The position numbers and the translations under genes are program-made. Positions 294 to 13,659 of a DNA stretch of 22,824 nucleotides are shown here, one piece after another; position 1 is the first letter of the stretch, and the number at the start of each line of letters is the position of its first letter. Location: IMG/VR virus record IMGVR_UViG_3300023179_008171, positions 1 to 22,824 of that record, one strand, 5' to 3'. Below the pieces are notes generated by a model. The model was given only the letters and a program-made list of their open reading frames with translations. It did not search any database and had not been told where the DNA came from. The stretch is from a virus.

Positions 294-573
294 ACCATGG
301 ACAATTAAAAATGAAAAAATGGATGAATGGGGATTTCGAATAGATGATGGTGAATTTGCCGGCACAGTAATTAGTATTAAAAATACCAGCATAACTGAAG
401 AAGGAGAGATGGCATTAGAATTTAATTTTATTGCAACTCCCCCAGAAAAAACATCCAAAGAATTAGAAAGCCAAGAATTCAATCAAGTATTGGAATATAT
501 TTTAAATGATATTCTTACAAAGGCAGTAAATGAGTTTGAAAATAGAGACAATAATTCTTCAGAATCTAATTAG
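277..573 (+). CDS. Small protein between uvsX and the helicase (T4 gene 40 position)
   Basis: This encodes 98 residues (MQVKYEPWTIKNEKMDEWGF...). The ATG at 277 is preferred over the in-frame ATG at 262 because GAGGAG (264-269) sits at normal Shine-Dalgarno distance before 277. The gene overlaps the end of uvsX by 17 bases and the start of the helicase gene by 44 bases, so the three are probably translationally coupled. The N-terminal half looks beta-rich (WGFRIDDGEFAGTVISI) and the C-terminal half helical and acidic. T4 has gene 40, a head-vertex assembly chaperone of similar size, in this place. I cannot confirm homology by eye, so the equivalence is positional only. Confidence 0.7.
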   Translation: MQVKYEPWTIKNEKMDEWGFRIDDGEFAGTVISIKNTSITEEGEMALEFNFIATPPEKTSKELESQEFNQVLEYILNDILTKAVNEFENRDNNSSESN

Positions 574-1159
574 TGACGAAGATTACATGCGCAAGGTTAT
601 CCCGTTTTTAAAGCGGGATTATTTTTCTGACAATACAGAACAAAAAATATATGACGAAATAACTAGATTTGTAGACAAATATAATTCCTCCCCGAACAAA
701 GATGCCCTTGTAGTTGCACTGCAAAATGATAAATCTTTAAACGAAGATCAATATAAAACTACTGTTGAATATGTTTTAAATTTTGATAAGAAAGAAGAAA
801 ACAAGAAATGGTTATTGGATCAAACTGAAAAATTCTGCAAGGAAAAGGCATTGTACAATGCGATACTTAGTTCTATTTCCATTATTGATGGTCGCAACAA
901 AAGTCTGTCTACTGACGGAATCCCACAGTTACTTCAAGACGCACTCGGAGTATGCTTCGACAACAACGTAGGGCATGACTACATTGATAATGCAGATAAT
1001 AGATATGAGTTTTACCATACAGTAGAGTCTAGAATTCCCTTTGATCTTGAATATTTTAATAAGATCACTAATGGTGGATTACCTAATAAGACATTGAATG
1101 TAGTTTTGGCAGGGTGTGTACACCCCAATACTAAAGTTAGAATTCGTTTTAAAAAGTAG
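530..1159 (+). CDS. gp41/DnaB-like replicative helicase, N-terminal piece ending in a 14-residue split intein N fragment
   Basis: This encodes 209 residues. Residues 1-195 match the N-terminal region of T4 gp41-type (DnaB family) helicases and stop in the middle of the Walker A loop (LNVVLAG). From Cys196 the sequence changes to CVHPNTKVRIRFKK and then TAG. A catalytic Cys followed by a short beta-strand-like stretch is an intein block A start (compare C-x-x-x-D/N-T-x-V in other inteins). The rest of the helicase, preceded by the remainder of the intein, is encoded from 1266. The ATG at 530 has an AAAGG-type ribosome site about 10 bases upstream. Trans-splicing of the two products would give a helicase of 195+271=466 residues, close to T4 gp41 (475). 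The alternative is a pseudogene, but both halves are intact and the second has its own ribosome site. Confidence 0.85.
   Translation: MSLKIETIILQNLISDEDYMRKVIPFLKRDYFSDNTEQKIYDEITRFVDKYNSSPNKDALVVALQNDKSLNEDQYKTTVEYVLNFDKKEENKKWLLDQTEKFCKEKALYNAILSSISIIDGRNKSLSTDGIPQLLQDALGVCFDNNVGHDYIDNADNRYEFYHTVESRIPFDLEYFNKITNGGLPNKTLNVVLAGCVHPNTKVRIRFKK
1115..1156 (+). other. Split intein, N fragment coding segment (14 residues)
   Basis: Codons Cys196 to Lys209 of the upstream helicase piece form block A of an intein and nothing more. Canonical split inteins carry about 90-100 residues in the N fragment, including block B. Here block B is on the other polypeptide. The layout therefore matches the atypically split class (AceL-TerL and VidaL, known from memory, with N fragments of about 25 and 16 residues). 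Confidence 0.8.
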
Positions 1160-1265
1160 CACCAAGGCGATATCCATTATTTAAATATTCTTCTAATTTA
1201 TCTTGACCGCCGCTGTATTTTGACGCATCGCGACTCACATTTTATTTATATTTTTAGGAGTTTCA
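1160..1265. other. Spacer between the split helicase genes
   Basis: These 106 bases separate the two helicase genes. The forward frame after the TAG codes nothing intein-like. An AGGAG ribosome site at 1257-1261 serves the second gene. On the minus strand, 1238-1149 is open from GTG to TAA for 29 residues (SRDASKYSGGQDKLEEYLNN, then GYRLGATF), preceded on that strand by TATAAATA (complement of 1243-1250). This could be a relic of a mobile nuclease gene or chance. Confidence 0.5.
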
Positions 1266-1652
1266 ATGAATGATTGGACAGTAAAAGATGTAGAAATTCA
1301 AGAAATAAATAATCTTTTGCAACAAGGATTTGAAGTTCAAGTTGATAGCCCCGATGGCTGGGTAGATGTAGATCTATTTGTTGATAAAGGTATGTGGCCA
1401 GAATATGTCCTTAATACATCAAATGGATATACTATTAGATGTAATGAAAATCATTTATTTGAAACAACTTCGGGATGGGTGAGCGCCAAAGAATTATTGG
1501 ATATTCAATCTTCTCATAACATAACCGTTCTAACAGATAAAGGATGGTTAACTGCGAATATTGAAAAGACTAACAACCTTATACCCATTGTAGATATTAG
1601 AGTAAATCACCCGAATCATAGGTATTATACCAATGGAGTAAGTTCGCATAAT
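1266..1652 (+). other. Split intein, C fragment coding segment (129 residues)
   Basis: This spans Met1 to Asn129 of the downstream helicase piece. It carries block B (H63) and the terminal His-Asn needed for asparagine cyclization, with Thr as first C-extein residue. Together with the 14-residue N fragment it makes a 143-residue mini-intein, a normal size for an intein without an endonuclease domain. The canonical block B Thr (TxxH) is replaced by Asn60 (N-E-N-H). Confidence 0.82.
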
Positions 1653-2468
1653 ACAGGTGTAGGAAAATCTTTGTTCATGTGTCATATTGCAGCAGCCACT
1701 CTAGCTCAAGGCAAAAATGTCTTGTATATTACCATGGAGATGGCAGAAGAAAGAATTGCTGAAAGAATAGATGCCAATTTAATGAATGTAACTTTGGATC
1801 AGTTAAAAGATTTACCTAAACAAATGTTTGATAATAGAATAGAAAAGATAAAGCAAAAGACACAGGGTAAATTAATTATTAAAGAATATCCTACAGCCGG
1901 GGCACATACCGGGCACTTTAAATCTTTACTAAACGAGCTTAAGTTAAAAAGACAATTTTCACCAGATATGATTATTATAGATTATCTAAATATCTGCGCA
2001 TCTTCAAGATTCAAAGCTGGCACGAATATTAATTCGTATACATTAATCAAGAGTATTGCCGAAGAACTAAGGGGCCTGGCAGTAGAAGAAAATGTGCCTA
2101 TCCTATCAGCTACACAGACGACTAGAGGAGGATACGGTAATACTGATGTTGAACTTACTGATACTTCAGAATCATTTGGACTTCCTGCTACAGTTGATCT
2201 TATGTTTGCCTTAATAGCAACTGAAGAACTAGATCAGTTAAATCAGATTATGGTAAAACAATTGAAAAATAGATATAATGATCCAACTATAAATAAAAGA
2301 TTCGTAATAGGTATTGATAGATCAAAGATGAAATTATTCAACCTAGAACAAACTGCCCAACAACATATTAGTGATTCTGGTATAAAGCTTGATGAATCCA
2401 AATTAGATCAATTTAATTTAGGTAACATTATAAAAAGAACACGTGATTTTTCCAGTATTAAAACTTAG
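1266..2468 (+). CDS. Split intein C fragment plus gp41/DnaB-like helicase ATPase domain
   Basis: This encodes 400 residues, with AGGAG placed 4 bases before the ATG. Residues 1-129 are the intein C fragment. It has a block B-like stretch (CNENHLF, H63, close to the CSEEHLF of the known gp41-1 intein), a block F-like stretch (VDIRVNHPNHRYYTNGV) and a block G end, SSHN129, followed by Thr130 as +1 residue. Residues 130-400 resume the helicase exactly where the first piece stopped: LAG joined to TGVGKSLF rebuilds a Walker A loop. Walker B is MIIIDY (D239). ILSATQTTRG (280-289) and the late IGIDRSKMKLF stretch are typical of gp41/DnaB helicases. The protein unwinds DNA 5'-3' ahead of the phage polymerase. 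No homing endonuclease domain is present. Confidence 0.88.
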   Translation: MNDWTVKDVEIQEINNLLQQGFEVQVDSPDGWVDVDLFVDKGMWPEYVLNTSNGYTIRCNENHLFETTSGWVSAKELLDIQSSHNITVLTDKGWLTANIEKTNNLIPIVDIRVNHPNHRYYTNGVSSHNTGVGKSLFMCHIAAATLAQGKNVLYITMEMAEERIAERIDANLMNVTLDQLKDLPKQMFDNRIEKIKQKTQGKLIIKEYPTAGAHTGHFKSLLNELKLKRQFSPDMIIIDYLNICASSRFKAGTNINSYTLIKSIAEELRGLAVEENVPILSATQTTRGGYGNTDVELTDTSESFGLPATVDLMFALIATEELDQLNQIMVKQLKNRYNDPTINKRFVIGIDRSKMKLFNLEQTAQQHISDSGIKLDESKLDQFNLGNIIKRTRDFSSIKT

Positions 2469-3926: not shown

Positions 3927-4004
3927 CTCGGATTAGTTCAGTCTGGTTAGAATGCCTGCTTTGGGAGCAGGAGGTCGAGAGTTCGAATCCCTCATCCGAG
4001 ACCA
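3927..4004 (+). tRNA. tRNA-Pro (anticodon TGG)
   Basis: Acceptor arms CTCGGAT and ATCCGAG pair fully, with discriminator A and encoded CCA. The anticodon stem CCTGC/GCAGG closes the loop TTTGGGA (anticodon TGG). The T loop is the normal TTCGAAT; its stem GAGAG/CCCTC has one A-C mismatch. The gene reads codons CCN/CCA in an AT-rich genome. Confidence 0.92.
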
Positions 4005-4008
4005 TTAT

Positions 4009-4082
4009 CTGACCGTAGCTCAGCCGGAGAGAGCAACGTATTTCTAATCCGTCGGTCGGGGGTTCGAATCCCTCCGGTCAGG
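4009..4082 (+). tRNA. tRNA-Arg (anticodon TCT)
   Basis: Acceptor CTGACCG pairs with CGGTCAG. The D stem is GCTC/GAGC, the anticodon loop is TTTCTAA (anticodon TCT), and the T loop is TTCGAAT between GGGGG and CCCTC. The anticodon stem has one T-C mismatch. CCA is not encoded (GCAACC follows), unlike the other tRNAs here. It reads AGA, the common Arg codon of AT-rich phages. Confidence 0.88.
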
Positions 4083-4111
4083 CAACCAGACATCTCTGAA
4101 AAAATCCACAA

Positions 4112-5501: not shown

Positions 5502-5576
5502 CTCCGGTTAGTTCAGTTGGTAGAATGCCTGCTTTGGGAGCAGGAGGTCGGGGATCGTGACCCTCACCGGAGACCA
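5502..5576 (+). tRNA. tRNA-Pro (TGG), second copy with a non-canonical T arm
   Basis: Acceptor CTCCGGT pairs fully with ACCGGAG, followed by A and CCA. The anticodon arm CCTGC-TTTGGGA-GCAGG is identical to the first tRNA-Pro. The T arm is one base shorter than in the first copy, and the loop reads ATCGTGA instead of TTCGAAT. The usual T54 and A58 are A and T. It may be decaying or functionally divergent. Confidence 0.75.
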
Positions 5577-11816: not shown

Positions 11817-12338
11817 ATGAAAATATTTAATGAAGTATTATCCAATGATCTTATCAATGAAATTTTCTCAGAGATAAAATCAAAAACTAGTGCTGCTAAA
11901 TGGGCTGCAAGTGTTCTATTATGGGATAATACTATATTGAATAACGTAATGGCACCTGTATTACAAACACCTGCAGAATATCATGGTGAAAAGATTCTTC
12001 AAGAAGTCAAAAAATTTTTACCAGATCATATCAAAGAATACAAAGCATATGTGCAGTATTATATTTGGACAAAAAATTCCTCAATATCCTTACATTTAGA
12101 TAGTAAACATGCATACGGAGCCACCATCTACTTAAATAGAGAATGGATAATCGATGAGGGTGGTATTTTTTTGTGGAAGGATAAACAAGAAAAAACAGAT
12201 TGCTACAGAGCTTATGTACCAAAATACAATAGTATGATTTTAAATGATGATAATGAGAAACATCTAGTGACACCCGTAAATCCTTTTTCTAGAAACTTTA
12301 GAATAACGGTACAAATTTTCGGTAAGAAAGAAGCCTGA
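11817..12338 (+). CDS. 2OG-Fe(II) oxygenase (prolyl-hydroxylase-like fold)
   Basis: This encodes 173 residues. SLHLDSKHAYGATIYLN (91-107) carries the H93-x-D95 pair. EKHLVTPV (147-154) gives the distal H149, and RNFRITVQIF (159-168) the 2-oxoglutarate-binding Arg162. This is the standard 2OG-FeII_Oxy order found in many T4-like phages. The substrate is unknown. It has a full-consensus host-type promoter whose start coincides with the ATG and no ribosome site, so the message is probably leaderless. The stop codon TGA is inside the acceptor stem of tRNA-Leu, an overlap of 6 bases, so the transcript may continue into the tRNAs. Confidence 0.82.
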   Translation: MKIFNEVLSNDLINEIFSEIKSKTSAAKWAASVLLWDNTILNNVMAPVLQTPAEYHGEKILQEVKKFLPDHIKEYKAYVQYYIWTKNSSISLHLDSKHAYGATIYLNREWIIDEGGIFLWKDKQEKTDCYRAYVPKYNSMILNDDNEKHLVTPVNPFSRNFRITVQIFGKKEA

Positions 12339-12420
12339 GTGGCGAAATTGGAGAAACGCAACAGACTTAAAATCTGTCACATTAGAAACACTGCCGGTTC
12401 GAATCCGGCCTCAGGTACCA
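12333..12420 (+). tRNA. tRNA-Leu (anticodon TAA)
   Basis: Acceptor GCCTGAG pairs with CTCAGGT (one G-T), then A and encoded CCA. The anticodon stem ACAGA/TCTGT encloses CTTAAAA (anticodon TAA). A long variable arm of class II type is present, and the T loop is TTCGAAT between GCCGG and CCGGC. It overlaps the upstream gene's last two codons. Confidence 0.93.
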
Positions 12421-12423
12421 ATT

Positions 12424-12500
12424 GCCCCTTTAGCTCAGTGGTCAGCAGCGCCCGGCTCATAACCGGTGGGTCCTTGGTTCAATTCCAAGAGGGGGCACCA
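12424..12500 (+). tRNA. tRNA-Met (anticodon CAT)
   Basis: Acceptor GCCCCTT pairs with AGGGGGC, then A and CCA. The anticodon loop is CTCATAA and the T loop TTCAATT between CTTGG and CCAAG. The CAT anticodon could also be a lysidine-modified tRNA-Ile reading ATA, which is common in phages and AT-rich genomes. The first acceptor pair (G-C) argues against an initiator. Confidence 0.9.
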
Positions 12501-13655: not shown

Positions 13656-13659
13656 AAAA

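What the first reader, a model, noticed from the sequence alone, without database searches (positions are those of the whole stretch)
1115..1652. Ultra-short-N split intein in the helicase Walker A loop
The helicase gene is fractured. The first polypeptide ends with only 14 intein residues (C196 to K209). The second begins with 129 intein residues ending SSHN followed by Thr. Joining LAG to TGVGKS restores the P-loop and a 466-residue helicase. Known gp41-1-type inteins split after about 90 residues. Only the atypical class (AceL-TerL, VidaL) has such short N fragments. This looks like a new member with one of the shortest natural N fragments, and with Thr rather than Ser or Cys at +1.
Basis: partly seen in the sequence, partly recalled or inferred. 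Interest (0 to 1): 0.9.

Follow-up and report, generated by a model that had tools for sequence, protein, structure and literature searches.

The report
Ultra-short split intein in phage helicase
A T4-like phage encodes its replicative helicase in two separate proteins that carry the halves of a self-splicing protein element (one half only 14 amino acids long), so the enzyme's ATP-binding loop must be rejoined after translation; the split was apparently left behind by a parasitic DNA-cutting gene that has since been deleted.

Summary
The helicase gene is broken in its Walker A loop: residues 1-195 plus 14 intein residues, then 129 intein residues plus 271 helicase residues. An intein-free relative aligns across LAG|TGVGKS without a gap. 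The C fragment is a HINT-type intein, nearest VidaL by sequence and fold; the N fragment supplies the first strand. Splicing was not tested.

It is not isolated. IMG/VR holds a family at the same site: 71 split and 5 contiguous of 87 distinct loci, N fragments 14-23 residues (five have 14), +1 Thr in 85. So 14 residues is one below the published 15, and Thr+1 is the family rule; no isolate phage in the collection carries it.

New here: in most relatives the break holds an antisense HNH endonuclease gene behind a T4-type late promoter. The window keeps that promoter and the gene's last codons. Near-identical inteins lie in helicases mostly 74-79% identical, with gaps of 758, 441, 223 and 88 nt: a homing gene invading, decaying and leaving a split intein. 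New member of a known kind.

The parts
530..1114 (+). N-extein: DnaB/gp41-like helicase residues 1-195, ending ..NVVLAG (first part of Walker A)
   Evidence: phrog_19 E 9.5e-43; aligns to intact Melnitz-3 helicase
1115..1156 (+). IntN, 14 residues CVHPNTKVRIRFKK (block A, nucleophile Cys1); stop TAG at 1157-1159
   Evidence: block A conserved in split and contiguous relatives
1149..1220 (-). Remnant of the 3' end of an antisense HNH homing-endonuclease gene (..KYSGGQDKLEEYLNNGYRLGATF*), its stop codon overlapping the IntN codons
   Evidence: tblastn vs relatives' HNH proteins 28.9 bits for DKLEEYLNNGYRLGAT; 27.7 bits when the gap alone is searched, 0 of 1000 dinucleotide shuffles reach it; translation
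1221..1242 (-). 5' half of the leader hairpin that precedes the HNH gene in relatives (AAATGTGAGTCGCGATGCGTCA); 3' half deleted
   Evidence: comparison by eye with the L124 leader; covarying hairpin in relatives
1243..1250 (-). TATAAATA, T4-type late promoter pointing into the gap, i.e. promoter of the lost HNH gene
   Evidence: exact match in the window and in 60 of 78 distinct loci just 5' of IntC
1256..1260 (+). Shine-Dalgarno AGGAG, 5 nt before the ATG of the second helicase gene
   Evidence: read directly; conserved in L002
1266..1652 (+). IntC, 129 residues, blocks B (NENH63), F (VDIRVNHPNHRYY) and G (VSSHN)
   Evidence: PDB VidaL 6vgv E 2.4e-11; AF2 pLDDT 90.4; Foldseek/VIA best match VidaL; invariant H63, D110, H118, H128, N129 in the family
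1653..2465 (+). C-extein: helicase residues 196-466, starting Thr+1 TGVGKS (rest of Walker A) through the RecA-like domain; stop 2466-2468
   Evidence: phrog_19 E 3.8e-79, Pfam DnaB_C 1e-16

Best explanation
The two ORFs make two polypeptides: helicase-N + IntN (14 aa) and IntC (129 aa) + helicase-C. IntN, a basic peptide forming the first long beta strand and carrying Cys1, docks on the acidic IntC and completes a HINT fold. Protein trans-splicing then follows the standard class 1 route: N-S acyl shift at Cys1, transfer to the side chain of Thr+1, cyclisation of Asn129 assisted by His128, and an O-N shift, giving a seamless 466-residue helicase with an intact Walker A loop. Evolutionarily, the intein was fractured by an antisense HNH homing-endonuclease gene inserted in the turn after residue ~14-16 and expressed from its own late promoter. 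In this phage the HNH gene has been deleted down to a 106-nt scar (last codons, half a leader hairpin, promoter) while the split intein stays under purifying selection because the helicase needs it. Shown here: anatomy, homology, fold, empty-site match, HNH remnant, homing signature in relatives. Inferred: that splicing happens, its chemistry, and the order of evolutionary events.
For: Anatomy and frames. Empty-site match with Melnitz-3. HINT fold and VidaL as nearest solved structure by sequence and fold; contiguous relative L042 folds as a whole intein (pLDDT 93.8) and matches VidaL with TM 0.86; in it the split falls in the turn between strands 7-13 and 19-25. Contiguous homologues at the same site, e.g. 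L055/L058-L060/L068/L069, in which IntN (..RFRKIS) runs in frame into IntC. Catalytic residues invariant. Only one N and one C helicase piece in six longer relatives. dN/dS 0.10 on IntC. HNH antisense ORF in 82 of 120 loci with both halves, re-fetched loci included; late promoter TATAAATA antisense in 60 of 78; HNH remnant in L002's gap (37.7 bits vs shuffled maximum 23.5; E 2e-6 when its 112-kb record is searched) and in the window's gap (0 of 1000 shuffles). Homing signature: intein DNA 98-99.7% identical in helicases mostly 74-79% identical; window/L002 IntN identical and IntC dS 0.47 against helicase dS 1.19-1.28. Net charge IntN +5, IntC -10.
Against: No splicing experiment. The 14+129 complex itself was not modelled (the tool takes one unmodified chain); the fold evidence for the assembled intein comes from the contiguous relative L042. 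Pfam's Intein_splicing model does not reach its cut-off (14.1 of 35.8 bits). The window is a 22.8-kb fragment, so a second helicase in this particular phage cannot be excluded. dN/dS rests on one pair, with dS above 1 in the exteins. The HNH remnant in the window is short (about 16 matched residues).
Confidence: 0.9

Rival explanations
1. Decayed intein: the helicase gene has been inactivated by intein degeneration and the phage uses another (host or phage) helicase.
For: The gene is interrupted by a stop and 106 nt of scar without an ORF.
Against: IntC and both exteins show purifying selection; all catalytic residues kept; SD before the second ORF; no second phrog_19 helicase in six longer relatives; the same break in dozens of phages.
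Confidence: 0.05
2. Assembly or sequencing artefact: the gene is really contiguous (a cis intein) and the stop plus scar are errors.
For: Contiguous forms exist among relatives (L042, L055, L110).
Against: L002 has the same stop and a different scar length at 75% extein identity; the scar contains an ordered HNH remnant, late promoter and SD; 71 split loci.
Confidence: 0.02
3. The two ORFs are joined at RNA or translation level (group I intron, ribosomal bypass or frameshift over the gap) rather than by protein trans-splicing.
For: T4-like phages have introns and one bypass case (established knowledge, T4 gene 60).
Against: No Rfam intron in the window; the gap is HNH debris; the IntN/IntC residues would remain in the P-loop unless protein splicing occurs; contiguous relatives have no spacer.
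Confidence: 0.01
4. The split is kept as a regulatory device: late antisense transcription from the retained TATAAATA promoter across IntN limits helicase-N synthesis, so it is not just a relic. (Compatible with trans-splicing.)
For: The late promoter is retained in the window after loss of the HNH gene and points antisense into the end of the helicase-N gene; L119 also keeps the promoter with an 88-nt scar.
Against: L002, L118 and the contiguous forms have lost it, so it is not generally needed; no expression data.
Confidence: 0.1

Closest known systems
VidaL split intein (PDB 6vgv/6vgw; IntN 16 aa)
   Same: Break after strand 2 (S1-type), Cys-dependent, long IntC; best sequence and fold match
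   Different: About 31-32% identity over IntC; IntN 14 vs 16 aa (PMC13014065). Natural host gene of VidaL not verified here (a 'T4-like helicase' origin is from memory)
PolB16 OarG intein (IntN 15 aa, published as shortest characterised; PMC10189870)
   Same: Atypical S1 split with ultra-short IntN
   Different: Cysteine-less, in a PolB gene, distant in sequence; the window's intein is Cys1/Thr+1
AceL-TerL / GOS-TerL and Cat (IntN about 25-30 aa)
   Same: Atypical N-terminal split
   Different: Natural TerL ones split after helix 1 (S2) as described in PMC13014065; TerL host gene
gp41-1 split intein (PDB 6qaz)
   Same: Same host gene (T4-like gp41 helicase), natural split with an endonuclease gene between the halves
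   Different: Different insertion site (SGY|SSSDV), canonical split near residue 88. It occurs as a second insertion in some relatives, e.g. L027, L057
Fractured genes (Dassa et al. 2009) and MIJ3 PolB with HNH (PMC6892783)
   Same: Endonuclease gene between the halves of a split intein
   Different: Here the HNH gene is antisense, late-promoted, at an S1 split, and in the window only a scar remains. Dassa 2009 could not be read (not held)

Membership tests
Inteins (HINT superfamily, class 1) | Block A with nucleophile at 1; blocks B, F, G; terminal His-Asn and Cys/Ser/Thr +1 | tested here: met
   C1, NENH63, D110, H128-N129, T+1; conserved across the family
Inteins (HINT superfamily, class 1) | HINT fold | tested here: met
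   IntC pLDDT 90.4, leading matches all inteins; whole intein via contiguous relative L042
Inteins (HINT superfamily, class 1) | Excision with ligation of exteins | not testable with these tools
   Only the gap-free empty-site alignment supports it
Atypically split inteins, S1 type (VidaL, PolB16) | Natural split leaving an ultra-short IntN, break after strand 2 | tested here: met
   14 aa; break in the turn between strands 7-13 and 19-25 of the L042 model
Atypically split inteins, S1 type (VidaL, PolB16) | Two separately translated genes | tested here: met
   Stop 1157-1159, SD 1256-1260, ATG 1266, read from sequence; translation not measured
Atypically split inteins, S1 type (VidaL, PolB16) | Trans-splicing activity | not testable with these tools
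   Needs a bench test
gp41-1 split inteins | Insertion at SGY|SSSDV of gp41 and split near residue 88 | tested here: not met
   Window insert is at LAG|TGVGKS, split after 14; the gp41-1 type is a second insert in other loci
Fractured genes with homing endonuclease between intein halves | Endonuclease gene in the break | tested here: met
   Only as a remnant in the window; intact antisense HNH in most relatives

The most novel reading that the evidence does not exclude
This helicase family shows the whole life cycle of a fractured gene: an antisense, late-promoted HNH homing gene inserts in a beta turn of a P-loop intein and splits it; the cassette sweeps through diverged phages; the nuclease then erodes to scars such as the window's, after which the intein stays split, becomes a stop-start overlap, or is fused back into a contiguous intein. 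Some relatives also carry a gp41-1-type intein in the same gene, so one helicase is made from three polypeptides by two different split inteins.
Probability: 0.65. Interest if true: 0.65.

Novelty: new member of a known kind. Interest (0 to 1): 0.55.

Why it matters
It adds a large natural family of ultra-short-IntN split inteins (a 14-mer is cheap to synthesise and useful for protein semisynthesis) with dozens of natural variants to test.

Tried and rejected
Considered and rejected: group I intron or other known RNA (Rfam finds only five tRNAs in the window); pseudogene (dN/dS); gp41-1 membership (different site and split). Chromosomal relatives: one genome-contig scan with the family alignment found none. 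Isolate phages: IntC matches are all under 60% identity; the records listed are mostly UvsX/RecA-type and terminase genes, and no record covers most of IntC plus the adjoining helicase. The window's HNH remnant was marginal with the first set of nucleases (21.2 bits) and became clear only with closer nucleases. The R1 hairpin-model hit at 13658 in the window is an ordinary terminator-like hairpin. R1 was not found in the few isolate regions tested. An 836-aa 'open frame' printed for the records of L014/L022 is not real: the translation has stops. The papers on VidaL (PNAS 2020) and fractured genes (NAR 2009) are not held.

Full report
Observation. The window is a complete 22,824-bp linear virus record. 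ORF 530-1159 encodes 195 helicase residues followed by CVHPNTKVRIRFKK and a TAG stop; 106 nt later, behind an AGGAG Shine-Dalgarno, ORF 1266-2468 encodes 129 residues ending VSSHN and then 271 helicase residues starting TGVGKS. The exteins match the T4-type helicase family phrog_19 in consecutive profile ranges, 159-361 and 362-589. The closest isolate helicases include Methylophilales phage Melnitz; its intact 463-aa protein aligns with the joined exteins over 462 columns (288 identical) with no gap at the junction, and shows the uninterrupted Walker A loop LAGTGVGKS.

Identity of the insert. IntC alone finds VidaL in the PDB (E 2.4e-11), and a profile of three contiguous relatives finds VidaL at 2.2e-18, aligning from position 4 of the intein, so most of block A is included. 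AlphaFold2 gives IntC at pLDDT 90.4; VidaL is first by Foldseek and VIA-align (Z 12.4, 2.5 A over 122 residues) and the leading matches are inteins. The contiguous relative L042 is modelled at pLDDT 93.8 and matches VidaL over the full chain (TM 0.86, 1.8 A). In that model residue 14 follows strand 7-13, and the next strand starts at 19: the split is in a hairpin turn, the position reported for VidaL and PolB16 (PMC13014065). Invariant residues in 31 relatives include H63 (block B), D110 and H118 (block F), H128 and N129.

Family. Three scans of IMG/VR gave 87 distinct loci after removal of re-fetched copies, nearly all in the same helicase at the same site; 71 are split, 5 contiguous, 11 undetermined; IntN is 14 (5 loci), 15 (1), 16 (36), 17 (17), 18 (8), 19 (2), 20 (1) or 23 (1) residues; +1 is Thr in 85 and Ser in 2. 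Hence a 14-residue IntN is one shorter than the shortest characterised (15, PMC10189870) but within the normal range of its family, and +1 Thr is not unusual. One scan of genome contigs found no relative, and no isolate phage record carries the intein in this helicase.

Cause of the split. In most relatives the gap, typically 700-1630 nt, holds an antisense ORF with an HNH motif (GLHEHHIxPKHMGG; Pfam HNH E 0.0021, just below its cut-off); 82 of 120 loci with both halves, re-fetched ones included, have it. On the minus strand just before it lies TATAAATA, the T4 late-promoter consensus, in 60 of 78 distinct loci; many of those lacking it are contiguous or nuclease-free forms. L002's 175-nt gap contains 33 codons of the HNH gene (37.7 bits against a maximum of 23.5 in 300 shuffles; 47.8 bits against a closer nuclease). 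The window's 106-nt gap contains, in antisense order, TATAAATA (1250-1243), the 5' half of the leader hairpin, and the last codons DKLEEYLNNGYRLGATF*; 0 of 1000 dinucleotide shuffles reach its score. The two gaps share their first 65 nt (98%, IntN codons included) and 25 nt near the end (92%) but differ in the middle, as expected from separate deletions of one ancestral insert.

Homing and decay. L124, L126, L118 and L119 have IntC DNA 98-99.7% identical while N-extein DNA is 74-79% identical in five of six pairs (the sixth, L119/L124, is 98%), and their gaps are 758, 441, 223 and 88 nt with, respectively, the nuclease intact, its first 74 aa, its last 56 aa and its last 7 aa. Window and L002 show the same in weaker form: IntN identical, IntC dS 0.47, exteins dS 1.19-1.28. 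On the IntC tree the short-gap and contiguous states need several changes (at least 5 and 4 forced by well-supported branches), and the contiguous L055/L068/L069 lie inside a clade of split, nuclease-bearing forms; L075 and L023 are stop-start overlaps. The likely course is nuclease insertion, spread, erosion, then either a persistent split (window) or refusion. The tree has few columns for its rows, and the direction of events is inferred.

Mechanism. IntN has net charge +5 and IntC -10, suggesting electrostatic capture of the 14-mer before it completes the fold; class 1 chemistry with Cys1, Thr+1, His128 and Asn129 follows from established intein biochemistry. Because the intein bisects the ATP-binding loop, the helicase should be inactive until spliced; six longer relatives have no second phrog_19 helicase. 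Splicing itself is not shown here.

Comparison. By mechanism it works like VidaL and PolB16 OarG (atypical S1 split, PMC13014065, PMC10189870); by membership all testable defining features are met and activity is not testable here. It is not a gp41-1 intein, which sits at another site of the same gene. An endonuclease gene between intein halves is a known arrangement (title of Dassa et al. 2009; HNH in MIJ3 PolB, PMC6892783); I found no description of an antisense, late-promoted HNH at an S1 split or of a graded decay series in the papers I could search, but key papers are not held.

Verdict. A real, new, ultra-short-IntN atypical split intein: a new member of a known kind, in a large uncultured-phage family whose alleles document how such splits arise.

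Noticed in passing
Leader of the antisense HNH gene in L004, L102-L105, L113-L117, L124, L126, L129, L130, L132, L136, L137; most of 80 further loci L150-L229; half of it at window 1221-1242 (-): A strongly covarying RNA hairpin (6-bp stem, CRC internal loop, 4-bp stem, then CUCUA) directly downstream of a TATAAATA late promoter and upstream of homing-endonuclease genes of unrelated families (GIY-YIG/NUMOD3, SegE-like, HNH). 79 distinct sequences: 98.9% of pair cells kept, covariation score 0.63 against 0.15 shuffled, on an alignment fitted to the model; 0.71 against 0.19 on the 13 founding sequences. Of 57 downstream ORFs 25 hit NUMOD3, 10 GIY-YIG, 7 HNH, 3 SegE (members can hit several); the clear non-nuclease, a cupin-type ORF (L193), has no model hit. 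Hits found by the model alone mostly have TATAAATA or a near variant. No Rfam match in the window and four of these loci. May be a new regulatory element shared by phage homing endonucleases.
   Followed up: partly
L148 1426-1510 (-), from the 129-kb record of L074: The same leader hairpin in front of a GIY-YIG-like gene at a locus away from the helicase.
   Followed up: partly
L027 2820-4011; also L028, L055, L057, L058, L071, L081: A second, gp41-1-type canonical split intein in the same helicase, with a GIY-YIG-like or methyltransferase-like gene between its halves in several loci; in L027 and L057 the helicase is in three pieces needing two different split inteins.
   Followed up: partly
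L139 2998-4269 (Pseudomonas phage MIJ3): An ORF annotated as RecA begins with an IntC related to this family, inserted in the UvsX P-loop (HN|SGKS), preceded by a 477-aa ORF of nuclease-like appearance; isolate phages PA5oct, Callisto and Paride have the same IntC match.
   Followed up: partly
L083 2746-4716 (Salicola phage SCTP-2): UvsX-like protein with two contiguous inteins, the first related to this family and unsplit at the P-loop.
   Followed up: no
L026, L033, L034, L037, L057 gaps (+ strand): Besides or instead of the HNH gene the break carries sense-strand cargo ORFs of unknown function (..YDIILSHLLDEGYAETPEAAEAIMVNMS..).
   Followed up: no
L070 gap (+ strand): Here the break holds a sense-strand ORF with a GIY-YIG-like start and repeated SPETRKKLSEA motifs instead of an antisense HNH gene.
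   Followed up: no
window 3927-4083, 5502-5576, 12333-12500: Five tRNA genes: Pro(TGG) twice, Arg(TCT), Leu(TAA), Met(CAT).
   Followed up: no
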